This document shows, piece after piece, positions 9,648-62,441 of a stretch of 64,000 nucleotides of DNA. Within the stretch, counting starts at the first letter, position 1; every line of letters starts with the position of its first letter. Both the position numbers and the translations under genes were made by a program. Below the pieces are notes generated by a model that saw only the letters and a program-made list of their open reading frames with translations, did not search any database and had not been told where the DNA came from. This DNA is from Lantana camara (lineage: Eukaryota; Streptophyta; Magnoliopsida; Lamiales; Verbenaceae): positions 21,535,001 to 21,599,000 of the forward strand of contig CM074860.1 in assembly GCA_037501455.1 (NCBI GenBank). The letters are read 5' to 3'.

Positions 9648-9686
<39 letters not shown>

Positions 9687-11105: not shown

Positions 11106-11546
11106 CTTAGCAAAACAATCAATCATAGCCCGGTGCTTGAATAACCAATCCATTCCCAGAATGAATCTATACTTCTTCATCGACATCACAATGAAGTCTG
11201 CAGAGTAATCCTTACCATCCAATCTCACCAAACAACCTTGAACAACCAGGTCTGTCTCAAGACTTTCCCCAAAAGGGGAACTAACCAAATAGCAAGAATT
11301 CAAGCACATAACAGGCAAGCACATAGTACCTAATAGTCCAAATGAAATAAAGGAATGCGTGGTACCAGGGACAAAGAGTGCCTGTATGTTCATGTTATGT
11401 ATGCAAATGGTACCTTCCACAACAACGGTGGGGTCAGCCTCCACATTCTGCTCCTCGCCCTCAAGGGCATAAGCACGTACTAGTTTCATAGGCCTCGGTG
11501 CTCCAGGTTGATAAGCCAGATTCTTGTCTGGACAAGCATTCACCAT
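11106..11546 (-). pseudogene. Gypsy element B: protease region with destroyed active site
   Basis: The frame carries ALEGEEQNVEADPTVVVEG, then IQALFVPGTTHSFIS, then [20 protein letters not shown], exactly parallel to the protease of element A. The catalytic D-S-G triad is replaced by V-P-G, so the protease is dead. The frame runs into LTR A at 11105, and the apparent last residues of the open frame are encoded by LTR A, an accident of the insertion. The normal continuation (RT) is at 1-426. Confidence 0.88.
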
Positions 11547-12552
11547 ATGATTCCCTTTCCCCGCATATTAGGTACAAACCCAACCTCTTCCGACAATTAT
11601 GGGATGTGTGAGTAGGTCCTCCATAATGAGTACATGGAGGTTTGTCCTCTCGGGGCCCAGAGGGAGTTGGTGGTAGAGCTGGTGGTGCCTGTGGAGCTGA
11701 TCCTAAAGTACGGGGCTTCTTGTTCGGGCCTTTCATTGGTGGAGCTGAATAATTGATAGGTTTCTTGCCCAAATTATACCCCGTTCTCGATCTTGACCCT
11801 TGTCCAGAATGATAAGTGGTCCTGCTGCTCACAACTCCATATTCAACTTTCAATGCCTTAGAAGTTGCCTTCACCCACATACTAATATTAACATCCTCAA
11901 TAGCTGCCTGAATGTTAGGCCGAAGTCCTTGAACAAATTGCATGGCTTTGTGAGTATCATCACTAGCAACGTTGGGATCATACCGAACTAACCGATCGAA
12001 TTCAGAAATATATTCCGAGACAGTCCTATTCCCTTGCTTCAATTCCATAAATTCCTTCAATCTCCGAGATCTAGCAGAAGGTGGAATAAACTTGCTCTTG
12101 AATTTGCGAGCCAGAACATCCCAAGTTACTTCTTCCCCGGCGGCATCTAAGCGAACCTTGGCAGTTTGCCACCACGAGAAGGCCTATCCTTGTAATAAAG
12201 CAATGGCACACCTCGCTTTCTCTTGAGATCCATGAGGAATAAGTTCCCAAATCCTCTCAATCTCCCTAAGCCACTGCTCGGCTTGTATATCATTTCCAGA
12301 ATAGAATTTAGGGGGATTTTGATTTCTGAATTCCCGATATACCACTATAATTCCTCCTTCTTGTACTCCCATGGGTGTAGGTGGAGGTGCAGGTGTCAGT
12401 GATACACAATCCCAAAGCCTTTGATCCATAATATTAATTACCAAATTGACAAAAGCCTCAGCCTGCGGTGGTTGTTACAGTTGAGGAGTGGGAGAACGAT
12501 CATGGTGATGGCGTCGGTCTGGGGATCGATCCCGATGTCTACAAGGTGGCAT
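11461..12552 (-). pseudogene. Gypsy element B: gag
   Basis: The start is the ATG at 12552 (MPPCRHRDRSPD), in the position matching the gag start of element A. The order is an Arg-rich N-terminus, then EFRNQNPPKFYSGNDIQAEQ with WLREIERIWELIP, then ELKQGNRTVSEYISEFDRLV with MQFVQGLRPNIQAAI, a proline-rich hinge, and the degenerate zinc knuckle CTHYGGPTHTSHNC. The capsid part is closer to typical plant chromovirus gag than the one in A, so A and B are different families, not copies of each other. Stops near 12480, 12180 and 12060 break it. Confidence 0.85.
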
Positions 12553-12747
12553 CCTATCAGAGAAACACTAAAATGTATGCTATGTTTAGTCCATGCATGA
12601 GAGTGCACGTATTTCAGTCAAGTATCAAGATTTAAGGCACATAGGCACATAAGCAATGCAGGTGAAACACATTGACAAGTAGTTCCTAAAACCGTACGAC
12701 CTAGATTGACTCAACACGACACTAGAGCCTGGGTTTTGCAACCCTAA

Positions 12748-12759
12748 GCTCTGATAACG
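12748..12759 (-). other. Primer-binding site of element B (degenerate)
   Basis: On the minus strand CGTTATCAGAGC lies 8 bp inside the LTR that starts at 12768. Two changes from TGGTATCAGAGC. Its place matches the primer site of element A. Confidence 0.65.
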
Positions 12760-12767
12760 CTTAAGGA

Positions 12768-14730
12768 TGTAACGCCCGAGCGTGAAACGTTACATCCCCC
12801 GTACCATGATCCGACCCATAAATGAAATGGGAAATCCATACACATGCAAAATTAAGGTGAACAGGGACACCACAGACTTACTACGCTAGGCCAGAACTAA
12901 CCCTTGAACCAATCAACCAATAATAAGATCATCAGAATGATTACAAAAGCAGAAGCATATAAACACTATATACATTAAGTTATAACTCCATACATCAACA
13001 ATACATTCCCAAGTACCAACGGCCCATACGGCCTCATATCGTTCCAAATACGATTCATACATTTATAATTCAAGAATGATCAAAAGGTATAAGTGTATAC
13101 ATAAAAGAAATGCTAGACCTTAATGCGAGACTCCCAAAGACTCGTATTCCAGCCTAGCACTTCCCACCTGCAAAAGTTAACTGAAAACATAACCGGGTTC
13201 AGTCTTAAAGAGACTGGTGGGTATAAAACAGGGCATAAGATATATAGATATTACGGAATTTAAACACATACATGCAAGCCATAATCCCGTATGAAGTTTT
13301 TATAACAATTCCCCAAATGCGTAAAACAATAAAAAGAATCAACGGGATTATAACATCGTATTCATTCATTCAATAGGTTATCCGTGAGCCTGGAGAGAGG
13401 GCTAAGCCTCCAACCTTCACCTTGTGTAATCGTTAATATTATTTATTACGTTATCACACACATAATCTTTCATGCATAATCATTCGATCATTTATAATCA
13501 ATCATATACCCTCCTTTTTTCCTCCCCGGCCACCTCAATCATTATGGATGGTGGGGTACATGAATCCCCAAGAACCCGGTTCTCATTCCTTGCTAACCTC
13601 CTAGCAAGGGCCGGTATTGCTGTAGTTTTGGTGGAACTAGTATACAGGGTTCACCGTCAGCCCATGCTTCCCTGGTTAACCACGTACACTAAGTCTCAGG
13701 GCCCCATTCGGTGCATTCATTCAATCTTGCCAAAATATTAGGTAGGGTATTCATTAAAGAAAGGGCTATACGTTCAAAATCATTTACTCTTCTAAAGATT
13801 CGGTATATACGTATAATAATTTGGCTTAAAACTTTACACATTAGGGGATATATCGGGTCTATTTACTACTAGAAGAGAAACCCACCTGATAAGTAGAAAG
13901 AAAGACAAGAAGATCTCACTGCTCGGCCTCGTCTCCAAACTGACCAAGATCCGTGTAACAAAAGTAGTGTAAGACTCAATATGACCATAACGAAGCACGA
14001 CAAGGCAATAAATGTAATATGAAGTATATGAATAAGAATAATCATGTGATGGAGATGTTCATATGCGCAATTAGGGTCACGAAAATAGGTAGACATATCA
14101 TTCACTCAATACATGAAGAATTGGTATTGAGTCATGATCATTCATTCATTTCATTCGATTCAATTCATACGTTAATCCATAACCAAGCTTCACGTATTCA
14201 TATCATAGCATAAGGATTCATATAATACTCAATATTCATTGACGAAGTTCATGAAATACGAAAAAATAGGTATGCCATTCAATATAAAAAACAAGTATTA
14301 ATATTCAAGGAAACAGGGGAGACACAGGTGTGTCTCCATCTCAGTTCAAATGGGGACATGGGCGTGACTTAGGTCAGGAGCCGAATCCCCTGTTCTGACA
14401 TGGGTGTATCACCAACATAGTTAAAATTAGGACATGCCCATGTTTTGACACAGGTGATGTCCTTCACAAATAGCTGGTGACACGGGCGTGTCACGTTTCA
14501 TGCGTTAAGGTCGACACGCCAGTGTCTGCACCAGTCACCATCATCTCCTTCGAATTTCCAGAGGCAACACACATAAACACATACTTGTTCCCCTGTTTTG
14601 AACCATTCCTAATAACAACAACAACTTAGCATGGAATGAACCAATCAAGTGTCTGTGCATCATAGATCGGTGAACGGTACACTTAAACATGCATATCACG
14701 TGCACTATGCATTTTGTTATTACCATCCAT
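12768..14730 (-). repeat. LTR of element B, outer end lost
   Basis: Starts TGTAACGCCCGAGCGTGAAA and shares the order of conserved blocks with the LTRs of A (for example CCGGGTTCAGTCTTAAAGAG at about 13194). It can be followed to about 14.7 kb but has no matching CGGGGCGTTACA end before element C begins. At 14310-14540 it has a cluster of short palindromic words of the form GACACGGGCGTGTC. Confidence 0.72.
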
Positions 14731-44897: not shown

Positions 44898-46044
44898 TGT
44901 TAGGAATAGTGCCCTAGAAAGCCGATTGTATATCCGCTTTGTGCTTTTCCTTATTGTAATCACAGACAATCTTTGAATGAAATAACGAATTGAGGCAACA
45001 CTTCTTTATATGCTCTTGTTTGGTATGCGTTTACTTTATCTGTGCATGTATGAGAACTCCCCTAATCCTGATGACTTTAGGACTCTGCCATTTAGGTGAA
45101 ATGGTTCATGAAACGAGCCCTATATCACATAAGTCATGATTAGTAAAATACTCCAAGCCGATGAGTCCTACAGACAGTGGGAGTGTCAACCTGACTCCTC
45201 TAAGGCTTGCTTGTGGGATCACGCCCTTAAGAAGGACCACCTTGTTTCATGGAGGTGGAAAGTGTATAGTTGATACGTGCGTGATACATAAGGGTGCTTA
45301 CTTTAATAAGTGAGTTCACTGAGGCGCCCCGTGTGAGAACATTCCTAAATGGGAAAGGAAGTTTCTATTTCAGGAAATGGAAACTTCCAGATTAGGAAAT
45401 ATCTCACGAGTCATTGATGTGATTAATTGATCCTTAGACTTGAGGTTCCTTGTCACTTTATGAGTTAACTCTGTAGTCTTAGGTATAAGCTTTAAAGGGT
45501 GTCGCCTTAGACAACTGATTCAAGGCTTATGCTGGGGTTGCACAAGTGACTCATGAAAGTGAATGAGAATCAAGATAGGACCTACACTTGCATTTGCAAG
45601 GTGATCTCTTATTGTGTAAGTCATTCATATGCCATATGGAGTCCTTGGCCAAGGCAGTAGATCAAGACATCAAGAAAAGGGTTTCTTGGATTGAGATCAA
45701 ATGGATATGAAATGCACTTAGCTTTAAGACCGGATTATTAGGGTTCTGATTATTCCCTTGCCCTAGATCTTGGTTGAGAGATAGTAAGTAGGAGGATTGT
45801 ATCTCACATGAATCAATGACTTAAAGGTTCGGTCGAATCCGAACATTCCAATTCAGCTAGGGGTTAAACACCTGTTGCTAGACTATGGTCGTTTAATCTG
45901 TGGACTGATTAATTAATTAGTGAATTAATTAATTAGGGTCACTGCTAATTGAATTGAGAACCTAGAGGGTCACACACAACAACTTGGTTACATGAGTTGA
46001 GGCTTGAAAATGATTAAATGAGTTAATCGGGCCAAGAGGGTTCC

Positions 46045-46105
46045 ACACGTGTGAAGTCACACGTGTGGCTCACGTGAGTGACACGTGTCACACACGTGTG
46101 TATAT
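46045..46105 (+). promoter_or_regulatory. Cluster of five CACGTG (G-box/ABRE-core) motifs in LTR E1
   Basis: Five CACGTG hexamers in about 60 bp, mostly extended as ACACGTGT. Plant bZIP and bHLH factors bind CACGTG cores. The cluster lies about 340 bp before the LTR TATA box, where an LTR enhancer would be. E2 and E3 carry six such motifs in a different arrangement. Confidence 0.7.
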
Positions 46106-46438
46106 ATATCTATATTATATATATTAAATAATTAATTAGTTAATTATTTAATAGACTTTGGTTTAATTTTGAATTAAAAAGAAAGTCTAATTTTGGAGAA
46201 AATAATCTAGTTAATTAATTATGAATTAATTAATTAGATAAAATAAGTTATTTATTTTATAATAAATAAAGTATAAAATTATCCAAAAATAGTTTGGATA
46301 TTTTTAGCTCTCTTAAAAGTTGACTTGAAATAGAATTCAAAGTCAAAGTTGGAAAATACTTGATGATCAAGTAATAGGAGAGAGAGGGACCAAATCCTTT
46401 GTCCATTAGGACTAGGTTCGGCCGCCCCTCCCCTTTCC

Positions 46439-46464
46439 TATATATAGGGGAGCTCATGCTCCCC
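46439..46464 (+). promoter_or_regulatory. TATA box and adjoining palindrome of LTR E1
   Basis: TATATATA (46439-46446) is followed at once by GGGGAGCTCATGCTCCCC (46447-46464), a 7-bp stem with a TCAT loop. Transcription would be expected to start just after it. E2 has the same layout at 54521-54546 with a perfect palindrome. Confidence 0.72.
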
Positions 46465-46833
46465 TTTAGAGCTAATTGACAATTCTTGGTTCATGTGTTG
46501 AACACCTTCCCTTCTCCAAGATTAAATTAAACCCTAGGTTAAGCCTAAACACTAACTAGAGAACTAGCATCCTTACTAGTTAGATTGTGATCAAGTTGGT
46601 GGACTTTCTCTAGAGACTTCAAGTTAGAAGTTTGAAGATTCGAGCTTTACCAAGGAGAGGGGATCAAGCCGCGTGAAGAGCGTTCTTGGGTGGCTTGAAA
46701 CGCTTCAAGAAAGAATAAAAGAAAAGTAAGTTTTCTATCTCTACGAATTTGGTTACACGATTGCGAGTCCTAGATCCTTTTGTTCGAAAAATTTTTAAAT
46801 TCCGCTGCTTTCTGATTCGTGTTTTCCAACAAG

Positions 46834-46846
46834 TGGTATCAGAGCC
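46834..46846 (+). other. Primer-binding site of copia copy 1
   Basis: TGGTATCAGAGCC lies 2 bp after the end of LTR E1, an exact match to the initiator-Met primer site. Confidence 0.92.
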
Positions 46847-47098
46847 ACCTCGTTAATCGTGTTTCTGATTCGTCTCAATTATACTGAATTTGGTAGAAAT
46901 TCTTAGGCTTGATGCGATTGAGTATTTGTAATTGTTTTAGAAAGCCTGAATTACGAAACTGTATTTTTTCCTGAAAGTTTCTGAAAATTGGTTTTTGCAA
47001 AAAATTAATTTTTGAAAACAATTTTAGATTTGAAACTGTATAAACTGTTTTTGGATTCTTGGATTGGTTTTGCTTTTGAACGAAAACACGAAACGAAA

Positions 47099-47405
47099 AC
47101 CCGGATCGCGACGAATACGCGAAACCCCGCGCGCGAAGGCGTCGCGCGCGCACCGCCCGCCTGTGCTAGGCGTGCGCAAGGGCAACCGCCCAGGCCTGGC
47201 CGGGACAGACCGGCCAGTCGCCCAGCACCTCCCGCACGCCTGTGCGGGAGCCTAGGCGCGCCCGCCCAGGGCGGCCGAGACTGGCCGCCCACCCCGCCCG
47301 CATGCTTGCGGGAAAGCCGCGCCCAGCAGCGCGCAGCGCGCCGCGTGCGTGCGGTCTTCTCCGCGTACGGGTCCCGTTTTCGCGATCCGGCCTTTTCGTG
47401 TTTCG
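47099..47405 (+). other. GC-rich leader island of copia copy 1
   Basis: About 300 bp of very high G+C in an otherwise AT-rich element, full of CGCG and GCCC words. It includes the hairpin CTCCCGCAC-GCCT-GTGCGGGAG at about 47228-47249 and CCCGCATGCTTGCGGG near 47297. Open frames on both strands (up to 146 codons) are a product of the low stop-codon density and are not conserved with copy 2. It is part of the untranslated leader before gag. Confidence 0.75.
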
Positions 47406-48505
47406 TGCAATCCAGTCCCAATTTTATTTTAATTTTAAAATTTTATTTTTGAATATTTATTTTAATTTTGAACAAAACTTAAAATTGGGATTTTTGAGAA
47501 ATTGAAACGGTTTATATTTTGGGAAAATACATCTTGATAAAATTATTAATTTTCAGAAATTAATTGGAATTTTATTTGTTTTGGTAATTTGGGATTTATT
47601 GAAAACTTTTATAAACAAGACTCGCATCAAGTCGTGTTTGAAGCTATTAGAGCTTAAGGCGAGAATTTTAATTTATTGGTTAAATTTAAATTCTTGCAAA
47701 AGCATGTTAGGTGATCATGGGTTTAGATCTATGTATGGTTTTAATTTATGCACATGGATGGTTTAAATTGGGGTTGGAGCCCTATAGTTGCGTTTTTCAA
47801 TTGAGGTTGGAGCCTCACTTATGTGCGTACTGTTATGTGATTTATTATGTGGCTTTCCATATTACTGTTTTTGAGGCCGGGGTATGCCCCGTGTAATTGT
47901 CTAAGGCCAATATGAAGATTGAGCCTTATTACTTTATGTCTTTTTCTTTTTATTGTAATTTGAGAGTAGAGATAGGTGATGAGGTTTTATTTTCATTTTG
48001 GAGACAATGCACCCATGGAGTAAGATGGACCACATTCAAGTAACAAGGAGGCCATAAGTGAAGACCCCTCAAAATGTTAGGGAGGGGAATCTCAATTGTT
48101 AAATGTAATAGAGATAGGGCTCGTATTTTGTTACCGCTTTCCCTTATGTGATTTCAACTGTTTATGTGGCATGTATGTTAGAACTTGTGATTGTGGAGTG
48201 GCTCCCACATATCACGCATAAGATAGGTAGAACCCATGATCATTACATGTTAGTATCATGCTAGGACATGTTATCTGTTTATGTGCTTGTTTGAAATGCA
48301 TTTAAGTGTACTTGCATTAATCAAGATTAATAAAATTGGATAACGTATATGTTGGTGAGGTCGAACCGGACAACTCTCCGGTTGATTCGAAAATTCCCAT
48401 TAAATATTAAGCTAATTTCGAACAAATAGGTGTTTAATTCGAGATGTAAATTTTGAATTGAATTCCTAGCATTCCATCAATAGGTTTTAAGTTAAGTAAG
48501 TAAAG

Positions 48506-48842
48506 CTAGTTATTGTCCGCGAGTCGTGGGATAGCTAGAGGAGCTTATTAGTTCTTAGTTACCTAATTAATCATTTTAAATGGTCAATATTTCGTGGTCA
48601 ATTTTAGCAAGGGCGATGTCCGCGAGTCGTGGGTCGTTCGAACTAAGTTTTGGTCATGATCTTATGATTGATGGGTCTAGCTTAACGCCTAAGTAAATAT
48701 GGATGTCGCACGAGTCGTGGGTCCATATTGAAAGATAGGTGATGCAAAAACAATTACTAAGAGTTCTAAAGGTGTTAGAATTGGTAAGTTGTACCTACCT
48801 AGGGTTCTTACTTAGAATGTCCGCGAGTCGTGGGTTCGAGGT
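48506..48842 (+). ncRNA. Four repeated hairpins with a common loop motif in the copia leader (copy 1)
   Basis: The motif GTCCGCGAGTCGTGGG occurs at 48515-48530, 48618-48633 and 48819-48834, with a variant GTCGCACGAGTCGTGGG at 48705-48721. Each is enclosed by a different complementary pair: CTAGTTAT/ATAGCTAG, GGGCGA/TCGTTC, ATATGGA/TCCATAT, and CTTAGAA/TTCGAGG (one mismatch). The motif itself can form TCCGC-GAGTC-GTGGG. The motif is conserved while the stems differ. This suggests RNA structure in the genomic RNA rather than a simple DNA repeat. The array ends about 200 bases before the gag ATG. Confidence 0.6.
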
Positions 48843-49040
48843 AAAATGCCTAGGATCTTAGTACCCATTGGGAAACGTGTTCCTCTTAGATCTTTGGGAA
48901 TTCTAGATCTTTGAAAAACAGTGGGAGCTACATTAGATTAAAGACCTTATCTTTTGTATATCGTTATAATTCAGCATGCTCACTAGTTCTCTGTTTTACC
49001 ATTTAGGTCGTAGATTCTATGATTCTCTACGTGTTTTGAA

Positions 49041-52000
49041 ATGGCAACCAAAAACCCTCTTGTATCGATCCTCGAGTCAAACAAGTTGACTGGTCCCAAC
49101 TATTCTGATTGGCTGAGGAATCTAAAAATCATTTTAGATTCTGAGAAGAGAACTTATGTTCTCTTCGAAGGGGAGCCTAGTCCCGAAGGGGAGGCTCCCA
49201 CTCGGGCCGAGCGGGATGCGATTCAGAAGTGGAAGGGTGATAATCTCCAAGCCCGTTGCCTTATGTTGGCTAACATGTCTCCGGACTTGCAAAGGCAACA
49301 TGAGGCCATGGAATTTGCTTGGGAGATTTACGACCACTTAGAGCAACTTTACCGCCCTCATGAACGTGTTACAAGGTATAACACTTCAAAGGAATTGTTC
49401 CACTTGAGAATGAGGGAAGGTTCAAGTGTCCATGAATATGGACTCAAGTTTCTTGCCCTTACTGAGAAACTTGCTTCCATGGACATGCCACTGAAAGATT
49501 AGCTTTCAGTGGATTTGTTGCTAGCTTCGCTCCCACCATCATTCAACCCATTTGTCCTTAACTTCAACATGAATCATGCTGGTGCTACTGTAGCTGAGCT
49601 GATTAGTCAGCTTGTGACTGCTGAAAGCACGATCAAGAAGGACAATAAGGTTTTGATGGTGAATGCTCCATCTTCCTCTTCTGGGCCTTCTAAAGGTAAG
49701 GGCAAGAAAGCCCAAAAGAAGAAGAAGAAACCCCTTAGGCCCACTGGTGGCATTTCGAAGGGGAAGGCCCAAAAGAAGAAGAGTGATCAGAAAGAGGATG
49801 TTTGCTTCCATTGTGGCAAAGCGGGACATTGGAGGAGAAACTGCCGAGAGTACAAGGCTACTCTAAAGAAAGGTATCTTTCTCGTTGAAGTAAATCTTTC
49901 TATTAATTCTAGTTCTTGGGTACTTGATACCGGTTGTGGAACTCATATCTGTAATGATGTACAGATGCTAAGTGATGTTCAACAACTAAAAGAAGGAGAA
50001 TGTGTCTTGAAGATCGGCGATGGCTCAAACGTTGAAGCTCGAGCTTTAGGCACAATTAGATTAGATTTAGGTAGTTTTGAGTTAGTATTAAATAAAGTCC
50101 TTTATGTACCGAGCATTATTCGTAATATAATTTCAGTTCCAATATTAGATTGTGAAGGTTATGAAACTTATATTAAGAATGGTTAATATTTTATCAAACG
50201 GAACAACTCTTCCGTTCATATCGGTACTCTAAGTAATGGACTTTACCTAACTCAAAATATCAATATTATGAATATACAACGAGAAACAAAGCGTAAGAGA
50301 GATGACAAAGTTTCAGCTCCCTTATGGCACGCTAGATTAGGACACATTTCCAAGAACAGAATTAGCAAGATAAACACTTTAGGATCATTCTCTGAAAATG
50401 ATCTCAAAGAGTTGACTTCTTGCGAATCCTGTCTCAAAGGAAAGATGTCCAAAGTTCCTTTTAAAGGAACTGTGGAACGTGCCACTAAGGTTTTGGATTT
50501 GATCCATACTGATGTTTGTGGACCGCTTAGTGTAAGCACTAGAAACAATCATCAGTACTTCATAACCTTTACTGATGATTTTAGTCGGTATGGTTATGTA
50601 TACTTAATGAAGTATAAATCTGAAGCTTTTGAGAAATTCTTAGAATTTCAAAAGGAGGTTGAGAACCAAACTGGTCACAAGATCAAAGCACTTCGATCTG
50701 ATCGAGGAGGCGAATATCTTAGTGAAGAATTCCTTAATCATCTCAAGGATAATGGAATTATCTCTCAGTGGACTCCTCCGGGAACTCCTCAGCTTAATGG
50801 AGTTTCTGAGAGAAGGAATCGAACCCTACTTGATATGGTTCGTTCCATGATGAGTTTCACTGACTTACCACCTTCTTTTTGGGGTTATGCCCTAGAAAGT
50901 GCAGCAAAGATTCTGAATCTTGTTCCCTCTAAGTCAGTCCCTAAAACGCCCTATGAAATGTGGCATGGTAAAATCCCTAGTTATTCTTACTTAAGAATTT
51001 GGGGTTGTCCTGCTTACGTGAAGAGGACAGTGGGAGATAAGTTAGAATCTCGTTCTAACTTATGCTACTTTGTAGGTTATCCTAAGGAATCCATAGGATA
51101 CTATTTCTATGATCAATCTGAGCAAAAGGTGTTTGTTTCCAGAAATGCCACTTTTCTTGAGGAACCGTTCCTTAAAGAAAAGAAAGGCAAGATCATAGAA
51201 TTAGAAGAAGTACAAAGTGACCCCACACCGAAGAAACGTCCCACTCTGATCAACCACAACCAATCACGAATTTCGATACACATGAAAACCCTCCTCTAAG
51301 GCGTTCTGAACGCAATCCTAGACAGCCGGAGAGATGGTATGGATTCTTCCATGAAATCTCTCAAAAGGATAATGATCCTTCAACATATGAGGAGGCACTT
51401 TCAGATTCTGAGTCTGAATAGTGGATAGAAGCCATGAAATCCGAAATGGATTCCATGAACTCCAACCAAGTTTGGACCTTGGTAGATTTGCCTGATAGGG
51501 TCAAACCTATAGGTTGCAAATGGATCTTTAAGAGAAAGCTTGGAGTTGATGGAAGCATTGCAGCCTACAAAGCAAGACTGGTTGCAAAAGGATTCACTCA
51601 GAGACCCGGCATGGACTTTGACGAAACCTTTTCACCAGTTGCAATGCAAAAGTCTATTCGGATCATGCTTGCCATTGCTGCATATTATGACTATGAGATA
51701 TGGCAAATGGATGTGAAAACTGCCTTTCTCAATGGTGACATTGACAAAGACATTTATATGGAACAACCCATAGGTTTCACATTCAGTGGGAGTGAGCAAA
51801 AGGTTTGCAAACTCCAAAGATCAATCTATGGATTGAAACAGGCTTCTAGGAATTGGAACATTCGATTTGATGAATCGGTCAAAGCGTTTGGCTTCACCCA
51901 AATTTCGAATGAATCATGTGTGTATAGAAAGGAATTGGAGACCTCAGTGCAATTCTTAGTACTTTATGTTGATGACATCCTTTTTATTGGGAATTCGAAG

Positions 52001-52954
52001 GATGACATGAAAGTGACTAAGTTATGGTTATCGAACCAATTCGAGATGAAAGATCTTGGTGATGCGTCCTATATCCTTGGAATTAAAATCTATAGAGATA
52101 AATCTAGAAGGTTAATAGGACTATCACAGTCGATGTACATTGACAAAGTATTGAAGAGATTCAATATGGAGTCAGCAAAGGTTAAGAACCTTCCTATGAG
52201 TGTAGGAACATGTCTTTCAAAGAAGATGTGTCCTAAGACTAACCTTGAAAAGGAAAGAATGACTCATACACCTTATGCATCAGCAATAGGTAGCATAATG
52301 TATGCAATGTTATGTACTCGACCGGATGTGGCTTATGCACTCAGTGTAACAAGTCGTTTCCAATCTGACCCTGGAGATAGTCACTGGGCTGCCGTGAAGA
52401 ATATTCTTAAGTACTTGAAAAGTACTAAAGATTTATTCTTAGTTTACGGAGGTCAGAAAGATCTTACTGTCGAAGGATACTGCGATGCAAGCTTTGCATC
52501 TGACTTAGATGATTTTAAGTCAATGTCAGGATACATTTTCTGCCTAAACGGCGGGGCAGTGAGTTGGAAGAGTTCCAAGCAAACAACCACTGCAGATTCG
52601 ACCACTGAGGCCGAATACTTAGCTGCAAATGATGCAGCTAAGGAAGGTGTTTGGATTAGAAACTTCATTCAAGAATTGAATGTTGTTCCTAGCATGAAAG
52701 ACCCCATTACTGTGTTTTGTGACAACACTGGGGCGGTTGCTCAAGCAAGAGAACCAAGATCTCACCAACGGACCAAGCACATTATGAGGAAGTATCACCT
52801 AATCCGTGATATTATCAAAAGAGGAGATGTGCTAATTGAGAGGGTCACATCAGCAGAGAACGTGGCAGATCCACTTACTAAACCCCTTAGTCGAGAAGCT
52901 TTCCAAGGTCATCTTCAGAAGATGGGACTTAGAGTAGCTTTAAAATGGCTTTGA
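49041..52954 (+). pseudogene. Copia copy 1 gag-pol polyprotein, four disabling lesions
   Basis: The ATG at 49041 opens MATKNPLVSILESNKLTGPN (gag). Order: gag capsid; zinc knuckle CFHCGKAGHWRRNC near 49802; protease LDTGCGTHIC near 49924; pre-integrase WHARLGHISKNRI; integrase HTDVCGPL, LRSDRGGEYLS and SERRNRTLLD; RT with FLNGDIDKDIYMEQP and the intact YVDDILFIG; RNase H GYCDASFASDLDDF to FCDNTGAVAQA. Lesions: TAG at 49500-49502 (Glu in copy 2), TAA at 50184-50186 (shared with copy 2), a 7-bp deletion near 51228 shifting the frame, and TAG at 51419-51421 (Gln in copy 2). The zinc knuckle is intact here, unlike copy 2. The gene would make the particle and enzymes for retrotransposition; this copy cannot on its own. 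Confidence 0.93.
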
Positions 52955-52960
52955 CGGGCA

Positions 52961-52970
52961 AGTGGGAGAT
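52961..52970 (+). other. Polypurine tract of copia copy 1
   Basis: AGTGGGAGAT lies between the pol stop codon (52954) and LTR E2 at 52971. The identical tract occurs at 61001-61010 in copy 2. Confidence 0.8.
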
Positions 52971-54914
52971 TATTAGGAATAGTACCCTAGAAAGCCGATT
53001 GTATATCCGCTTTGTGCTTTTCCTTATTGTAATCACAGACAATCTTTGAATGAAATAACGAATTGAGGCAACACTTCTTTATATGCTCTTGTTTGGTATG
53101 CATTTACTTTATCTGTGCATGTATGAGAACTCCCCTAATCCTGATGACTTTAGGACTCTGCCATTTAGGTGAAATGGTTCATGAAACGAGCCCTATATCA
53201 CATAAGTCATGATTAGTAAAATACTCCAAGCCGATGAGTCCTACAGACAGTGGGAGTGTCAACCTGACTCCTCTAAGGCTTGCTTGTGGGATCACGCCCT
53301 TAAGAAGGACCACCTTGTTTCATGGAGGTGGAAAGTGTATAGTTGATACGTGCGTGATACATAAGGGTGCTTACTTTAATAAGTGAGTTCACTGAGGCGC
53401 CCCGTGTGAGAACATTCCTAAATGGGAAAGGAAGTTTCTATTTCAGGAAATGGAAACTTCCAGATTAGGAAATATCTCACGAGTCATTGATGTGATTAAT
53501 TGATCCTTAGACTTGAGGTTCCTTGTCACTTTATGAGTTAACTCTGTAGTCTTAGGTATAAGCTTTAAAGGGTGTCGCCTTAGACAACTGATTCAAGGCT
53601 TATGCTGGGGCTGCACAAGTGACTCATGAAAGTGAATGAGAATCAAGATAGGACCTACACTTGCATTTGCAAGGTGATCTCTTATTGTGTAAGTCATTCA
53701 TATGCCATATGGAGTCCTTGGCCAAGGCAGTAGATCAAGACATCAAGAAAAGGGTTTCTTGGATTGAGATCAAATGGATATGAAATGCACTTAGCTTTAA
53801 GACCGGATTATTAGGGTTCTGATTATTCCCTTGCCCTAGATCTTGGTTGAGAGATAGTAAGTAGGAGGATTGTATCTCACATGAATCAATGACTTAAAGG
53901 TTCTGTCGAATCCGAACATTCCAATTCAGCTAGGGGTTAAACACCTGTTGCTAGACTATGGTCGTTTAATCTGTGGACTGATTAATTAATTAGTGAATTA
54001 ATTAATTAGGGTCACTGCTAATTGAATTGAGAACCTAGAGGGTCACACACAACAACTTGGTTACATGAGTTGAGGCTTGAAAATGATTAAACGAGTTAAT
54101 CGGGCCTAGAGGGTTCCACACGTGTGAAATCACACGTGTGGGTCACGTGAGGAGCACGTGTCCTTGGGACACGTGCCTCACACGTGTATATGTATATATA
54201 TGATATATATTAAATAATTAAATGTGTTGATTATTTAATAGACTTTGGTTTAATTTTGAATTAAAAGAAAAGTCTAATTTTGGAGAAAATAATCTAGTTA
54301 ATTAATTATGAATTAATTAATTAGATAAAAAATAAGTTATTTATTTTATAATAAATAAAGTATAAAATTATCCAAAAATAGTTTGGATATTTTTAGCTCT
54401 CTTAAAAGTTGACTAGAATTAGAATTCAAAGTCAAAGTTGGAAAATACTTGATGATCAAGTAATAGGAGAGAGAGGAACCAAATCCTTGTCCAATAAGGA
54501 TTTGGATCGGCACTCCCTCCTATATATAGGGGAGCTCGAGCTCCCCTTTAGAGCTAATTGACAATTCTTGGTTCATGTGTTGAACACCTTCCTTTCTCCA
54601 AGATTAAATTAAACCCTAGGTTAAGCCTAAACACTAACTAGAGAACTAGCATCCTTACTAGTTAGATTGTGATCAAGTTGGTGGACTTTCTCTAGAGACT
54701 TCAAGTTAGAAGTTTGAAGATTCGAGCTTTACCAAGGAGAGGGGATCAAGCCGCGAGAAGAGCGTTCTTGGGTGGCTTGAAACGCTTCAAGAAAGAATAA
54801 AAGAAAAGTAAGTTTTCTATCTTTACGAATTTGGTTACACGATTCCGAGTTCAAGGTCCTTTTGTTGGGAAAATTTTTTAAATTCCGCTGCTTTCTGATT
54901 CGTGTTTTCCAACA
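52971..54914 (+). repeat. Copia LTR E2 (shared middle LTR)
   Basis: Starts TATTAGGAATAGTACCCTAG (first G of TGTT changed to A) and ends GTGTTTTCCAACA. It acts as 3' LTR of copy 1 and 5' LTR of copy 2. Over the 1431 bp that can be compared it differs from E3 by two transitions only (near 53017 and 53183). It has six CACGTG motifs at 54117-54187, a TATA box at 54521-54528, and a perfect palindrome GGGGAGCTCGAGCTCCCC at 54529-54546. Confidence 0.93.
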
Positions 54915-54916
54915 AG

Positions 54917-54929
54917 TGGTATCAGAGCC
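54917..54929 (+). other. Primer-binding site of copia copy 2
   Basis: TGGTATCAGAGCC, 2 bp after LTR E2. Confidence 0.92.
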
Positions 54930-55095
54930 ACCTCGTTAATCGTGTTTCTGATTCGTCTCAATTATACTGAATTTGGTAGAAATTCTTAGGCTTGATGCGA
55001 TTGAGTATTTGTAACTGTTTTAGATTTGAAACTGTATAAACTGTTTTTGGATTTCTTGGATTGGTTTTGCTTTTGAACTAAAACACGAAACGAAA

Positions 55096-55440
55096 ACCCG
55101 GATCGCGACGAACACGCGAAACCCCGCGCGCGAAGGCGTCGCGCGCGGCCTTCGCGCGCACCGCCCGCCTGTGCTAGGCGTGCGCAAGGGCAACCGCCCA
55201 GGCCTGGCCGGGACAGACCGGCCAGCCGCCCAGCTCCTCCCGCACGCCTGTGCGGGAGCCTTCAGGGCGCGCGGCCGAGACTGGCCGCCCACCCCGCCCG
55301 CATGCTTGCGGGAAAGCCGCGCCCAGCAGCGCGCAGCTTGCGCGCTGTGCGCGAATGTCGCGCGCCGCGCGCGCCCCGTGCGTGCGGTCTTCTCCGCGTA
55401 CGGGTCCCGTTTTCGCGATCCGACCTTTTCGAGTTTCGTG
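55096..55440 (+). other. GC-rich leader island of copia copy 2
   Basis: Counterpart of 47099-47405, but with several length changes (extra CGCGCGGCC and CGCGCGCCGCGCGCG words). The hairpin CTCCCGCAC-GCCT-GTGCGGGAG is kept. Just before it, 87 bp present in copy 1 (46935-47021) is missing here; the two sides in copy 1 share the 7-bp repeat TTTTAGA. Confidence 0.75.
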
Positions 55441-56538
55441 CAATCCAGTCCTAATTTTATTTTAATTTTAAAATTTTATTTTTGAATATTTATTTTAATT
55501 TTGAACAAAACTTAAAATTGGGATTTTTGAGAAATTGAAACGGTTTATATTTTGGGAAAATACATCTTGATAAAATTATTAATTTTCAGAAATTAATTGG
55601 AATTTTATTTGTTTTGGTAATTTGGGATTTATTGAAAACTTTTATAAACAAGACTCGCATCAAGTCGTGTTTTAAGCTATTAGAGCTTAAGGCGAGAATT
55701 TTAATTTATTGGTTAAATTTAAATTCTTGCAAAAGCATGTTAGGTGATCATGGGTTTAGATCTATGTATGGTTTTAATTTATGCACATGGATGGTTTAAA
55801 TTGGGGTTGGAGCCCTATAGTTGCGTTTTTCAATTGAGGTTGGAGCCTCACTTATGTGCGTACTGTTATGTGATTTATTATGTGGCTTTCCATATTACTG
55901 TTTTTGAGGCCGGGGTATGCCCCGTGTAATTGTCTAAGGCTAATATGAAGATTGAGCCTTATTACTTTATGTCTTTTTCTTTTTATTGTAATTTGAGAGT
56001 AGAGATAGGTGGTGAGGTTTTATTTTCATTTTGGAGACAATGCACCCATGGAGTAAGATGGACCACATTCAAGTAACAAGGAGGCCATAAATGAAGACCC
56101 CTCAAAATGTTAGGGAGGGGAATCTCAATTGTTAAATGTAATAGAGATAGGGCTCGTATTTTGTTACCGCTTTCCCTTATGTGATTTCAACTGTTTATGT
56201 GGCATGTATGTTAGAACTTGTGATTGTGGAGTGGCTCCCACATATCACGCATAAGATAGGTAGAACCCATGATCATTACATGTTAGTATCATGCTAGGAC
56301 ATGTTATCTGTTTATGTGCTTGTTTGAAATGCATTTACGTGTACTTGCATTAATCAAGACTAATAAAATTGGATAACATATATGTTGGTGAGGTCGAACC
56401 GGACAACTCTCCGGTTGATTCGAAAATTCCCATTAAATATTAAGCTAATTTCGAACAAATAGGTGTTTAATTCGAGATGCAAATTTTGAATTAAATTCCT
56501 AGCATTCCATCAATAGGTTTTAAGTTTAGTAAGTAAAG

Positions 56539-56875
56539 CTAGTTATTGTCCGCGAGTCGTGGGATAGCTAGTGGAGCTTATTAGTTCTTAGTTACCTAAT
56601 TAATCATTACAAATGATCAATATTTCGTGGTCAATTTTAGCAAGGGCGATGTCCGCGAGTCGTGGGTCGTTCGAACTAAGTTTTGGTCATGATCTTATGA
56701 TTGATGGGTCTAGCTTAACGCCTAAGTAAATATGGATGTCGCACGAGTCGTGGGTCCATATTGAAAGATAGGTGATGCAAAAACAATTACTAAGAGTTCT
56801 AAAGGTGTTAGAATTGGTAAGTTGTACCTACCTAGGGTTCTTACTTAGAATGTCCGCGAGTCGTGGGTTCGAGGT
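56539..56875 (+). ncRNA. Four repeated hairpins with a common loop motif in the copia leader (copy 2)
   Basis: The same four motif copies as in copy 1 (first at 56548-56563), with the same enclosing stems and spacing. A substitution just after the first hairpin (TAGAGG to TAGTGG) leaves the stem intact. Confidence 0.6.
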
Positions 56876-57073
56876 AAAATGCCTAGGATCTTAGTACCCA
56901 TTGGGAAACGTGTTCCTCTTAGATCTTTGGGAATTCTAGATCTTTGAAAAACAGTGGGAGCTACAATAGATTAAAGACCTTATCTTTTGTATATCGTTAT
57001 AATTCAGCATGCTCACTAGTTCTCTGTTTTACCATTTAGGTCGTAGATTCTGTGATTCTCTACGTGTTTTGAA

Positions 57074-60000
57074 ATGGCAACCAAAAACCCTCTTGTATCG
57101 ATCCTCGAGTCAAACAAGTTGACTGGTCCCAACTATTCTGATTGGCTGAGGAATCTAAAAATCATTTTAGATTCTGAGAAGAGAACTTATGTTCTCTTCG
57201 AAGGGGAGCCTAGTCCCGAAGGGGAGGCTCCCACTCGGGCCGAGCGGGATGCGATTCAGAAGTGGAAGGATGATAATCTCCAAGCCCGTTGCCTTATGTT
57301 GGCTAACATGTCTCCGGACTTGCAAAGGCAACATGAGGCCATGGAATTTGCTTGGGAGATTTACGACCACTTAGAGCAACTTTACCGCCCTCATGAACGT
57401 GTTACAAGGTATAACACTTCAAAGGAATTGTTCCACTTGAGAATGAGGGAAGGTTCAAGTGTCCATGAATATGGACTCAAGTTTCTTGCCCTTACTGAGA
57501 AACTTGCTTCCATGGACATGCCACTGAAAGATGAGCTTTCAGTGGATTTGTTGCTAGCTTCGCTCCCACCATCATTCAACCCATTTGTCCTTAACTTCAA
57601 CATGAATCATGCTGGTGCTACTGTAGCTGAGCTGATTAGTCAGCTTGTGACTGCTGAAAGCACGATCAAGAAGGACAATAAGGTTTTGATGGTGAATGCT
57701 CCATCTTCCTCTTCTGGGCCTTCTAAAGGTAAGGGCAAGAAAGCCCAAAAGAAGAAGAAGAAACCCCTTAGGCCCACTGGTGGCATTTCGAAGGGGAAGG
57801 CCCAAAAGAAGAAGAGTGATCAGAAAGAGGATGTTTGCTTCCATTGTGGCAAAGCGGGACATTAGAGGAGAAACTGCCGAGAGTACAAGGCTACTCTAAA
57901 GAAAGGTATCTTTCTCGTTGAAGTAAATCTTTCTATTAATTCTAGTTCTTGGGTACTTGATACCGGTTGTGGAACTCATATCTGTAATGATGTACAGATG
58001 CTAAGTGATGTTCAACAACTAAAAGAAGGAGAATGTGTCTTGAAGATCGGCGATGGCTCAAACGTTGAAGCTCGAGCTTTAGGCACAATTAGATTAGATT
58101 TAGGTAGTTTTGAGTTAGTATTAAATAAAGTCCTTTATGTACCGAGCATTATTCGTAATATAATTTCAGTTCCAATATTAGATTGTGAAGGTTATGAAAC
58201 TTATATTAAGAATGGTTAATATTTTATCAAACGGAACAACTCTTCCGTTCATATCGGTACTCTAAGTAATGGACTTTACCTAACTTAAAATATCAATATT
58301 ATGAATATACAACGAGAAACAAAGCGTAAGAGAGATGACAAAGTTTCAGCTCCCTTATGGCACGCTAGATTAGGACACATTTCCAAGAACAGAATTAGCA
58401 AGATAAACACTTTAGGATCATTCTCTGAAAATGATCTCAAAGAGTTGACTTCTTGCGAATCCTGTCTCAAAGGAAAGATGTCCAAAGTTCCTTTTAAAGG
58501 AACTGTGGAATGTGCCACTAAGGTTTTGGATTTGATCCATACTGATGTTTGTGGACCGCTTAGTGTAAGCACTAGAAACAATCATCAGTACTTCATAACC
58601 TTTACTGATGACTTTAGTCGGTATGGTTATGTATACTTAATGAAGTATAAATCTGAAGCTTTTGAGAAATTCTTAGAATTTCAAAAGGAGGTTGAGAACC
58701 AAACTGGTCACAAGATCAAAGCACTTCGATCTGATCGAGGAGACGAATATCTTAGTGAAGAATTCCTTAATCATCTCAAAGATAATGGGATTATCTCTCA
58801 ATGGACTCCTCCGGGAACTCCTCAGCTTAATGGAGTTTCTGAGAGAAGGAATCGAACCCTACTTGATATGGTTCGTTCCATGATGAGTTTCACTGACTTA
58901 CCACCTTCTTTCTGGGGTTATGCCCTAGAAAGTGCAGCAAAGATTTTGAATCTAGTTCCCTCTAAGTCAGTCCCTAAAACGCCCTATGAAATGTGGCATG
59001 GTAAAATCCCTAGTTATTCTTATTTAAGAATTTGGGGTTGTCCTGCTTACGTGAAGAGGACAGTGGGAGATAAGTTAGAATCTCGTTCTAACTTATGCTA
59101 CTTTGTAGGTTATCCTAAGGAATCCATAGGATACTATTTCTATGATCAATCTGAGCAAAAGGTGTTTGTTTCCAGAAATGCCACTTTTCTTGAGGAACCG
59201 TTCCTTAAAGAAAAGAAAGGCAAGATCATAGAATTAGAAGAAGTACAAAGTGACCCCACACCACCCACTGAAGAAACGTCCCACTCTGATCAACCACAAC
59301 CAATCACGAATTTCGATACACATGAAAACCCACCTCTAAGGCGTTCTGAACGCACTCCTAGACAGTCGGAAAGATGGTATGGATTCTTCCATGAAATCTC
59401 TCAAAAGGATAATGATCCTTCAACATATGAGGAGGCACTTTCAGATTCTGACTCTGAACAGTGGATAAAAGCCATGAAATCCAAAATGGATTCCATGAAC
59501 TCCAACCAAGTTTGGACCTTGGTAGATTTGCCTGATGGGGTCAAACCCATAGGTTGCAAATGGATCTTTAAGAGAAAGCTTGGAGTTGATGGAAGCATTG
59601 CAGCTTACAAAGCAAGACTGGTAGCAAAAGGATTCACTCAAAGACCCGACGTGGACTTTGACGAAACCTTTTCGCCAGTTGCAATGCAAAAGTCCATTCG
59701 AATCATGCTTGCCATTGCTGCATATTATGACTATGAGATATGGCAAATGGATGTGAAAACTGCCTTTCTCAATGGTGACATTGACAAAGACATTTATATG
59801 GAGCAACCCATAGGTTTCACATTCAGTGGGAGTGAGCAAAAGGTTTGCAAACTCCAAAGATCAATCTATGGATTGAAACAGGCTTCTAGGAATTGGAACA
59901 TTCGATTTGATGAATCGGTCAAAGCGTTTGGCTTCACCCAAATTTCGAATGAATCATGTGTGTATAGAAAGGAATTGGAGACCTCAGTGCAATTCTTAGT

Positions 60001-60994
60001 ACTTTATGTTGATGACATCCTTCTTATTGGGAATTCGAAGGATGACATGAAAGTGACTAAGTTATGGTTATCGAACCAATTCGAGATGAAAGATCTTGGT
60101 GATGCGTCCTATATCCTTGGAATTAAAATCTATAGAGATAAATCTAGAAGGTTAATAGGACTATCACAGTCGATGTACATTGACAAAGTATTGAAGAGAT
60201 TCAATATGGAGTCAGCAAAGGTTAAGAACCTTCCTATGAGTGTAGGAACATGTCTTTCAAAGAAGATGTGTCCTAAGACTAACCTTGAAAAGGAAAGAAT
60301 AACTCATACACCTTATGCATCAGCAATAGGTAGCATAATGTATGCAATGTTATGTACTCGACCGGATGTGGCTTATGCACTTAGTGTAACGAGTCGTTTC
60401 CAATCTGACCCTGGAGATGGTCACTGGGCTGCCGTGAAGAATATTCTTAAGTACTTGAAAAGTACTAAAGATTTATTCTTAGTTTACGGAGGTCAGAAAG
60501 ATCTTACTGTCGAAGGATACTGCGATGCAAGCTTTGCATCTGACTTAGATGATTTTAAGTCAATGTCAGGATACATTTTCTGCCTAAACGGCGGAGCAGT
60601 GAGTTGGAAGAGTTCCAAGCAAACAACCACTGCAGATTCGACCACTGAGGCCGAATACTTAGCTGCAAATGATGCAGCTAAGGAAGGTGTTTGGATTAGA
60701 AACTTCATTCAAGAATTGAATGTTGTTCCTAGCATGAAAGACCCCATTACTGTGTTTTGTGACAACACTGGGGCGGTTGCTCAAGCAAGAGAACCAAGAT
60801 CTCACCAACGGACCAAACACATTATGAGGAAGTATCACCTAATCCGTGATATTATCAAAAGAGGAGATGTGCTAATTGAGAGGGTCACATCAGCAGAGAA
60901 CGTGGCAGATCCACTTACTAAACCCCTTAGTCGAGAAGCTTTCCAAGGTCATCTTCAGAAGATGGGACTTAGAGTAGCTTTAAAATGGCTTTGA
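57074..60994 (+). pseudogene. Copia copy 2 gag-pol polyprotein, one frame with three stops
   Basis: A single frame of 1306 residues from the ATG at 57074, the usual copia length, interrupted by three stops. TAG at 57863-57865 falls in the zinc knuckle (CFHCGKAGH then stop, where copy 1 has Trp). TAA at 58217-58219 is shared with copy 1. TAA at 58286-58288 replaces Gln. From 58301 to the end 897 codons are open, with pre-integrase, integrase, RT (YVDDILLIG around residue 978) and RNase H (CDAS around 1150). In the integrase SDRGGEY has become SDRGDEY. Gag ends within the nucleocapsid, so the enzymes could be made only by readthrough or internal initiation, which is not expected. Confidence 0.93.
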
Positions 60995-61000
60995 CGGGCA

Positions 61001-61010
61001 AGTGGGAGAT
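61001..61010 (+). other. Polypurine tract of copia copy 2
   Basis: AGTGGGAGAT directly before LTR E3 at 61011. Confidence 0.8.
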
Positions 61011-62441
61011 TATTAGGAATAGTACCCTAGAAAGCCGATTGTATATCCGCTTTGTGTTTTTCCTTATTGTAATCACAGACAATCTTTGAATGAAATAACG
61101 AATTGAGGCAACACTTCTTTATATGCTCTTGTTTGGTATGCATTTACTTTATCTGTGCATGTATGAGAACTCCCCTAATCCTGATGACTTTAGGACTCTG
61201 CCATTTAGGTGAAATGGTTCATAAAACGAGCCCTATATCACATAAGTCATGATTAGTAAAATACTCCAAGCCGATGAGTCCTACAGACAGTGGGAGTGTC
61301 AACCTGACTCCTCTAAGGCTTGCTTGTGGGATCACGCCCTTAAGAAGGACCACCTTGTTTCATGGAGGTGGAAAGTGTATAGTTGATACGTGCGTGATAC
61401 ATAAGGGTGCTTACTTTAATAAGTGAGTTCACTGAGGCGCCCCGTGTGAGAACATTCCTAAATGGGAAAGGAAGTTTCTATTTCAGGAAATGGAAACTTC
61501 CAGATTAGGAAATATCTCACGAGTCATTGATGTGATTAATTGATCCTTAGACTTGAGGTTCCTTGTCACTTTATGAGTTAACTCTGTAGTCTTAGGTATA
61601 AGCTTTAAAGGGTGTCGCCTTAGACAACTGATTCAAGGCTTATGCTGGGGCTGCACAAGTGACTCATGAAAGTGAATGAGAATCAAGATAGGACCTACAC
61701 TTGCATTTGCAAGGTGATCTCTTATTGTGTAAGTCATTCATATGCCATATGGAGTCCTTGGCCAAGGCAGTAGATCAAGACATCAAGAAAAGGGTTTCTT
61801 GGATTGAGATCAAATGGATATGAAATGCACTTAGCTTTAAGACCGGATTATTAGGGTTCTGATTATTCCCTTGCCCTAGATCTTGGTTGAGAGATAGTAA
61901 GTAGGAGGATTGTATCTCACATGAATCAATGACTTAAAGGTTCTGTCGAATCCGAACATTCCAATTCAGCTAGGGGTTAAACACCTGTTGCTAGACTATG
62001 GTCGTTTAATCTGTGGACTGATTAATTAATTAGTGAATTAATTAATTAGGGTCACTGCTAATTGAATTGAGAACCTAGAGGGTCACACACAACAACTTGG
62101 TTACATGAGTTGAGGCTTGAAAATGATTAAACGAGTTAATCGGGCCTAGAGGGTTCCACACGTGTGAAATCACACGTGTGGGTCACGTGAGGAGCACGTG
62201 TCCTTGGGACACGTGCCTCACACGTGTATATGTATATATATGATATATATTAAATAATTAAATGTGTTGATTATTTAATAGACTTTGGTTTAATTTTGAA
62301 TTAAAAGAAAAGTCTAATTTTGGAGAAAATAATCTAGTTAATTAATTATGAATTAATTAATTAGATAAAAAATAAGTTATTTATTTTATAATAAATAAAG
62401 TATAAAATTATCCAAAAATAGTTTGGATATTTTTAGCTCTC
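61011..62441 (+). repeat. Copia LTR E3, truncated
   Basis: Nearly identical to E2 from its first base, including the TATTAGG start and the six CACGTG motifs (62157-62227). It stops at TTTTTAGCTCTC, about 80 bp before the position of the TATA box. The last 500 bp of the LTR is absent, so no 3' target duplication can be read. Confidence 0.93.

What the first reader, a model, noticed from the sequence alone, without database searches (positions are those of the whole stretch)
48506..48842. Four hairpins with one conserved loop-side motif and four different stems in a copia leader
GTCCGCGAGTCGTGGG (or a close variant) appears four times about 90-115 bases apart upstream of gag. Each copy is closed by its own complementary pair of flanks, including a G-U wobble in the first and a perfect 7-bp pair in the third. 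In the variant copy a change inside the inner stem turns a G-U pair into A-U. A conserved loop with covarying stems is the mark of a selected RNA structure, such as a packaging, dimerisation or translation-control element. I know of no described copia element with this array.
Basis: partly seen in the sequence, partly recalled or inferred. Interest (0 to 1): 0.75.

Follow-up and report, generated by a model that had tools for sequence, protein, structure and literature searches.

The report
Four-hairpin RNA module in plant retrotransposon
A very abundant plant jumping gene carries, just before its first gene, a folded RNA region with four hairpins that end in the same motif but stand on different stems; related copies change both sides of the stems together, and gene-dead partner copies still carry it, so it is probably the tag by which the element's particles pick up their own RNA.

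Summary
Three exact copies and one variant of TGTCCGCGAGTCGTGGG lie 207-527 nt before gag in a copia element's 2.2-kb leader. Each is closed by its own stem (8, 6, 8 and 3+6 pairs). A second element in the window carries the same array. The genome (1.27 Gb) has 21,256 exact 16-mer hits.

Two diverged subfamilies, found without using the motif, keep the hairpins while the stems change (10 of 13 loci have all four in place). Against 400 tree-based null alignments, both-sided changes that stay paired are in excess in the stems (27 cells, null maximum 23) and in the rest of a fold made from the window sequence alone (68, null maximum 48). So about 490 nt (48464-48958) is a selected RNA structure. 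No single pair passed an R-scape-like test.

A 41%-gag relative has a like first hairpin at nearly the same offset. Seven of 37 loci are partner elements: leader kept, gag region without a usable frame (longest ORF 49-83 aa), hairpins present. That favours a cis-acting packaging-type signal over control of gag translation. Gag binding itself is inferred. I found no described plant copia array in the papers searched.

The parts
44898..46831 (+). 5' LTR of element 1 (about 1.93 kb; TG start and CCAACA end read by eye)
   Evidence: self-comparison of window
46834..46846 (+). primer binding site TGGTATCAGAGCC (name recalled: complementary to initiator tRNA-Met)
46832..49040 (+). 2.2-kb leader with 45 ATGs before the gag start
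48464..48958 (+). structured RNA module (about 490 nt) that carries the four hairpins
   Evidence: window-only fold whose pairs are kept by both-sided changes in subfamilies B and C
48506..48538 (+). hairpin 1: 8-bp stem, core 48514-48530
48611..48639 (+). hairpin 2: 6-bp stem with two G-U, core 48617-48633
48696..48729 (+). hairpin 3: 8-bp perfect stem, variant 18-nt core 48704-48721
48809..48843 (+). hairpin 4: 3+6 bp stem with one A.G mismatch, core 48818-48834
48566..48588 (+). hairpin without the core, both-sided changes in two pairs between subfamilies
48888..48910 (+). hairpin without the core, both-sided changes in two pairs between subfamilies
48920..48946 (+). gag-proximal element AGTGGGAG..TTAAAGACC; 48919-48925 pairs with 48864-48870; shared with the distant relative L061
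49041..49502 (+). gag (copia type), interrupted by a TAG in element 1
56547..56867 (+). same four-core array in element 2
57074..57865 (+). gag of element 2, Retrotran_gag_2
58289..60994 (+). pol of element 2: gag_pre-integrs, integrase core, then RVT_2

Best explanation
Positions 48464-48958 are a cis-acting RNA module in the genomic RNA of a high-copy plant copia retrotransposon. Shown: four hairpins at fixed places present nearly the same tip (UGU bulge, 5-bp inner stem, AGU triloop, GUGGG on the 3' side) on four unrelated stems; related subfamilies keep tip and pairing while stem letters change; partner elements without a usable gag frame carry LTR, leader and hairpins and have multiplied. 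Inferred: the repeated tip is a multivalent landing site for a protein that acts in trans, most likely the Gag protein of the coding-competent elements. Loading Gag on four tips would mark full-length RNA for packaging into the particle. Also inferred: because the module lies between a possible splice donor in the LTR (46726) and a possible acceptor just before gag (49006), splicing could remove it from the mRNA and leave it only in genomic RNA, as in retroviruses.
For: Array and flanks; high-probability fold in context. Subfamily B (commonest core TGTCTCACGAGTCGTGGG, 10 of 19 units) and C (TGGCCACGAGTCGTGGG, 6 of 27; its other cores are variants) keep the sites. Both-sided stem changes include hp1 pair 5 G-C/A-T, hp1 pair 1 T-A/C-G, hp4 pair 2 A-T/G-C, and hp4 pair 7 C-G/T-A. 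Aggregate test: outer stems 27 B/C cells changed on both sides and still paired (null mean 5.0, max 23, 0 of 400); other window-fold pairs 68 cells (mean 13.6, max 48, 0 of 400) and 24 pairs (mean 11.6, max 20, 0 of 400). B and C stems read directly against their cores: 121 of 152 and 176 of 216 near positions paired; shuffle maxima 82 and 119 in 5000. Of 42 loci found by the gag-proximal pattern rather than the core, 41 hold at least one core with up to 2 substitutions. Distant L061 (gag 41%): core TGGCTGCAGATATGTGGG on a 12-bp stem, 407 nt before its AGTGGGAG; window hairpin 1 lies 406 nt before. Type II partners: 7 of 37 distinct loci, longest ORF 49-83 aa in 1.2 kb versus 143-395 (395 is the most the stretch allows, reached by 13) in 27 type I loci; leader 85.9-96.1%; LTR 91-97% over 0.5-1 kb and 85-87% over its first 230-250 nt in the two loci checked; stem pairing 177 of 183 cells in 6 loci versus 620 of 640 in 20 type I loci.
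Against: No binding, packaging or transcript data exist here. No pair was individually significant in the tree-aware test. Pairing of B rows at the window's outer-stem columns was not above null (0.823 vs 0.773, 67 of 400); the number of outer-stem pairs with any both-sided change was not (8 vs 5.6, 60 of 400); inner stems showed no excess of both-sided changes. Hairpin 2 gained nothing from native over chimeric arms (-12.1 vs -12.2 kcal/mol). Within the window subfamily, arms were no less variable than spacers (p = 0.18). Among type II copies the module is hardly more alike than the dead gag stretch: 92.9 vs 94.3% in 6 loci, 96.0 vs 94.0% without L074, whose leader is cut short. So type II may simply have received the leader by recombination or recent descent rather than kept it by selection. 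The unit counts lean towards a constant core, because units were recognised by CGAGTCGTGGG with up to 2 substitutions. Everything but L061 comes from one genome, and L061 lacks the CGAGTCGTGGG string.
Confidence: 0.52

Rival explanations
1. The tips bind a host protein, for example for nuclear export, stability or P-body targeting of unspliced RNA, in the manner of a constitutive transport element.
For: Same facts: repeated tip, covarying stems, present in type II. A long leader with splice-like sites would need export of unspliced RNA.
Against: No host ligand known. In L061 hairpin 1 keeps only TGGC..GTGGG and two other hairpins share a different motif, which fits a partner that changes with the element better than a fixed host factor; this rests on one sequence.
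Confidence: 0.2
2. The module serves dimerisation, primer-tRNA placement or strand transfer during reverse transcription rather than Gag recognition.
For: It lies in the leader after the PBS and is present in type II elements that must be mobilised in trans; any perfect hairpin can also form a two-strand duplex.
Against: The triloop AGU is not self-complementary, so no kissing loop is evident; the module lies about 1.6 kb from the PBS.
Confidence: 0.13
3. Translation control of gag (ribosome shunt, IRES or attenuator) across a leader with 45 ATGs.
For: Position directly before gag and many upstream ATGs. Among type II copies the module is not clearly more conserved than the dead gag stretch.
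Against: Type II elements have no gag frame (longest ORF 49-83 aa in 7 of 7) yet carry the hairpins at 177 of 183 paired cells in the 6 loci counted.
Confidence: 0.1
4. No selected structure: a short tandem duplication or a DNA-level binding site whose flanks pair by chance.
For: Within the window subfamily the arms are not slower than spacers; single-pair covariation is not significant.
Against: Flank pairing beyond 20,000 shuffles, both-sided changes that stay paired beyond 400 tree nulls, G-U pairs that only an RNA strand would use.
Confidence: 0.04

Closest known systems
Retroviral packaging signals (Psi), e.g. several stem-loops with like tips in murine leukaemia virus (recalled, not read here)
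   Same: Several hairpins in the leader just before gag, with recurrent tip motifs.
   Different: This is a copia element of a plant, the tip is a 17-18-nt motif with its own inner stem, repeated four times; Gag binding not shown.
BARE1/BARE2 of barley (PMC3735527, passages read)
   Same: Copia element with an untranslated leader, and a partner unable to make Gag whose RNA is packaged into the other's particles; that paper mentions conserved dimerisation and packaging signals in BARE2.
   Different: The passages describe no hairpin array with a repeated tip; here the partner's gag region is about 65% alike in DNA where it aligns (L072) and without any long frame.
Ty1 leader RNA structures of yeast (search listing of PMC8396678 and recall only)
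   Same: Copia-type Gag binds structured leader RNA.
   Different: Ty1 is known for a pseudoknot and pairings with the tRNA, not for a repeated tip on different stems (recalled).
LARD and other non-autonomous LTR elements of plants (recalled)
   Same: LTR and cis parts kept, coding lost, mobilised in trans; resembles type II here.
   Different: Type II still carries a recognisable decayed coding region; the four-hairpin module is not described for them as far as I know.

Membership tests
Copia (Ty1/copia) LTR retrotransposon | Copia-type gag and RVT_2 reverse transcriptase, integrase before RT | tested here: met
   PF14223, then rve at 78-178 before RVT_2 at 406-650 in element 2
Copia (Ty1/copia) LTR retrotransposon | Paired LTRs and a tRNA primer binding site | tested here: met
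   LTR copies 96.8-97.3% alike; TGGTATCAGAGC after the LTR
Psi-type packaging signal | Lies in the leader between PBS and gag | tested here: met
   PBS 46834, module 48464-48958, gag ATG 49041
Psi-type packaging signal | Stem-loops held by both-sided changes | tested here: met
   aggregate count of both-sided paired cells 0 of 400 nulls; single-pair test not significant
Psi-type packaging signal | Present and selected in elements that depend on proteins in trans | tested here: inconclusive
   present in type II, 7 of 37 loci; selection within type II not shown; trans-mobilisation inferred
Psi-type packaging signal | Bound by Gag and needed in cis for packaging | not testable with these tools
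   needs binding and particle-RNA assays
Known Rfam RNA family | Match to a family model | tested here: not met
   no match inside the module in a scan of 44898-50000 even at E up to 5
BARE-like separate RNA pools | Separate translated and packaged transcripts | not testable with these tools
   splice-like sites only

The most novel reading that the evidence does not exclude
A lineage of plant copia elements marks its genomic RNA with a multivalent code: four hairpins of fixed spacing, unrelated stems and one shared tip read by the element's Gag, with the tip motif changing between lineages together with Gag, and with gene-dead partner families surviving because they carry the module. The module may sit in an intron, so that only unspliced RNA carries it.
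Probability: 0.33. Interest if true: 0.8.

Novelty: new variant of a known kind. Interest (0 to 1): 0.62.

Why it matters
How plant LTR retrotransposons, which make up large parts of plant genomes, pick their own RNA is hardly known; a recent review of plant LTR elements has no occurrence of 'packaging signal' or 'secondary structure' in its main text (PMC12786077, term search). A defined module with a repeated tip, natural stem variants and natural gene-dead partners makes the question directly testable with short RNAs and purified Gag pieces.

Tried and rejected
Rfam scan: nothing in the module. IMG/VR exact-core scan: 0; IMG/VR gag scan: 0 relatives among 72 stretches. Pattern with G/C on both sides of the core: 0 places. 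Arms versus spacers within the family: no difference. R-scape-like single-pair test: no significant pair, phylogenetic covariation dominates. RNAalifold on 16 of 18 rows (L100 and L095 dropped) gave many both-sided pairs but mis-paired hairpins 2 and 4 and is partly circular, so counts rest on the window-only fold. Papers, judged from listings and passages: the motif string gave 7 unrelated papers; each found only the BARE paper; others (15 of 59 listed; 5; 12 of 13 listed; 11) listed none on a plant copia array. Kissing-loop dimerisation rejected as lead because AGU is not self-complementary. Extra tRNA pairing considered, not pursued.

Full report
What is there. The window holds two copia elements in tandem (LTR-internal-LTR-internal-truncated LTR, offset 8033, 99.0% alike over 7,081 columns). 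The LTR is about 1.93 kb, the primer site TGGTATCAGAGC starts at 46834, and the gag ATG is at 49041, so the leader is 2.2 kb. Proteins are copia type. That the genome is a plant is inferred: the named gag relatives are nearly all from flowering plants; the assembly is unnamed. Four cores lie at 48514, 48617, 48704 and 48818. Each abuts its own stem: the uninterrupted pairs sum to 25 against at most 18 in 20,000 shuffles of the flanks, and flanks of different hairpins pair in runs of 0-4. In an 800-nt fold the outer pairs have probability 0.90-1.00 except one hp4 pair (0.65) and the hp4 mismatch; the inner stem C4-G16..G8-C12 is at 0.86-1.00 in hairpins 1, 2 and 4. In hairpin 3 four inner pairs are at 0.63-0.72 and a fifth at 0.19.

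How common. The assembly that holds the window is 1.27 Gb, with 21,256 exact places of the 16-mer and none of its reversed control. Forty loci around listed places showed mostly the same four sites with few changes. Within this subfamily there is too little change to test pairs: arms 0.047, spacers 0.057 diversity, p = 0.18.

Diverged relatives. A gag-proximal pattern, AGTGGGAG..TTAAAGACC, excluding the window's own next base, gave 197 places of which 30 were cut out and 12 more fetched. It does not contain the core, yet 41 of the 42 loci hold at least one core with up to 2 substitutions (L100 does not). Subfamily B (L090, L092-L094, L102; leader about 75% alike to the window; gag of L090 70-84% identical in two pieces) has TGTCTCACGAGTCGTGGG in 10 of 19 units. 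Subfamily C (8 loci, leader 75-90%) is mixed: TGGCCACGAGTCGTGGG in 6 of 27 units (of hairpins 1, 2 and 4: 1 of 6, 1 of 7, 4 of 7), the rest variants such as TGGCCGCGAGTCGTGGG. CGAGTCGTGGG is exact in 223 of 263 A, 12 of 19 B and 15 of 27 C units, and GTGGG ends 248, 16 and 25 of them; these shares lean high because units were recognised by that string with up to 2 substitutions. The inner 5' side reads CCGCG, CCACG or CTCACG, so the inner G-U becomes A-U. Ten of 13 B/C loci have all four hairpins at the expected places; L092 and L095 have three, and L096 has four at shifted offsets. Stems change on both sides in hairpins 1 and 4.

Test. I anchored 75 leaders with all four hairpins (84 sequences considered, 81 with an anchor, six of these lacking a core at the expected place; 65 A, 4 B, 6 C; 74 unique), built a tree, and made null copies that keep tree, substitution counts and site rates. 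Single pairs: none significant. Aggregates on a structure taken from the window sequence alone: outer stems, B/C cells changed on both sides and still paired 27 (null 5.0, maximum 23); C rows paired 0.946 (null 0.793, 0 of 400 reach it); B rows 0.823 (null 0.773, 67 of 400: not significant); pairs with both-sided change 8 (null 5.6, 60 of 400: not significant). Inner stems: B 0.974 (1 of 400), C 0.974 (9 of 400), no excess of both-sided changes (2 pairs vs null 3.5). The other 104 pairs of the fold: 24 both-sided pairs (null 11.6, maximum 20), 68 cells (null 13.6, maximum 48), B 0.899 (1 of 400), C 0.939 (0 of 400). The A figures are not a test, since the structure came from A. So the 48464-48958 stretch as a whole behaves as a selected RNA fold, and the four cores cap four of its arms.

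Independent look at B and C: stems read directly against their own cores are paired at 121 of 152 and 176 of 216 of the eight nearest positions; 5,000 shuffles reach at most 82 and 119. Native arms beat cross-subfamily arms in hairpins 1 and 4 (-12.5 vs -11.3, -11.6 vs -8.8 kcal/mol), slightly in 3 (-11.1 vs -10.4) and not in 2 (-12.1 vs -12.2).

A distant relative. L061, a contig filed under a bacterium (surely foreign DNA; inference), encodes a gag 41% identical. It has no CGAGTCGTGGG within 2 errors, but has an 18-nt core TGGCTGCAGATATGTGGG on a 12-bp stem, one of three places with a 17- or 18-nt core and at least 9 abutting pairs in the stretch before gag. It lies 407 nt before AGTGGGAG; hairpin 1 of the window lies 406 nt before its own. 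Its inner stem CUGCA/UGUGG is of the same plan as CCACG/CGUGG. Two further L061 hairpins share CAATAA.CTA..ATGTGAGG on different stems, 108 nt apart, at -230 and -122, against -216 and -102 for window hairpins 3 and 4. This suggests the array is old and that tips change; it rests on one sequence, and the fold of the region between is less clear.

Partner elements. Among 37 distinct loci with an anchor and at least 1.2 kb of downstream sequence, 7 (L018/L019 as one, L065, L071, L072, L074, L076, L088) match the window at 0.95-0.97 over the 60 nt from the gag-proximal element, then 0.68-0.82 over the next 180 nt and 0.23-0.48 over the following 180. Their longest sense ORF in the 1.2-kb gag stretch is 49-83 aa, against 143-395 in 27 other window-type loci, 13 of which reach the ceiling of 395, and 143-297 in the three B/C loci. 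The copies are 94% alike in that stretch (6 of 7 compared), so they multiplied after losing the frame. Their leader matches the window at 85.9-96.1% (412 to 1,828 columns). In the two loci checked the LTR matches at 91-97% over 0.5-1 kb and at 85-87% over its first 230-250 nt. Five have all four hairpins at the expected places and L074 three, with 177 of 183 stem cells paired, like type I (620 of 640; 20 loci). L071 shows three cores at offsets shifted by about 445 nt and was not counted. Against me: among type II copies the module is hardly more alike than the dead gag stretch (92.9 vs 94.3%; 96.0 vs 94.0% without L074), so selection on the module after the loss of gag is not shown. The 37 loci are not a random sample: 30 were chosen by the gag-proximal variant pattern.

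Reading. A module carried by multiplying elements that make no Gag is most simply a cis signal used in trans. Four like tips on unlike stems point to a protein that reads the tip. Gag is the first candidate; host export factors are the main rival. The leader's 45 ATGs, a donor-like AAAA|GTAAGT at 46726 in the LTR and acceptor-like CATTTAG at 49006, and TTTTCTATTGTAG just before gag in L061 suggest, without proof, that the module is intronic in the gag mRNA.

Against known things. BARE1/BARE2 of barley is the nearest system in behaviour (PMC3735527, passages). No array of this kind appeared in the listings of seven answered searches of a library that lacks most subscription journals, so absence there is weak evidence of novelty.

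Noticed in passing
44898-62441: Tandem LTR-internal-LTR-internal-LTR arrangement of two copia elements, offset 8033, 99.0% alike over 7,081 columns; the last LTR is cut at about 62441.
   Followed up: partly
L019, L065, L071, L072, L074, L076, L088: A partner family with the window family's leader and LTR but a diverged gag region without a usable frame; its 3' LTR begins about 700 nt earlier than in the window element in the two loci checked.
   Followed up: partly
48920-48927 and 52957-52972: AGTGGGAG occurs both just before gag and as the purine stretch before the 3' LTR; the gag-proximal copy is shared with L061.
   Followed up: no
46726 and 49006: Splice-donor-like site in the LTR and acceptor-like site just before gag; the whole leader could be an intron.
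   Followed up: no
1-14000: Remains of other LTR elements on the minus strand with Ty3-type gag, RVT_1, RNase H and integrase pieces, and local repeats.
   Followed up: no
L061 2280-2299 and 2388-2407: Two hairpins with a shared tip CAATAA.CTA..ATGTGAGG on unlike stems, 108 nt apart, in a distant copia leader filed under Geminicoccus harenae.
   Followed up: partly
47130-47330: A GC-rich block with short near-repeats within the otherwise AT-rich leader.
   Followed up: no
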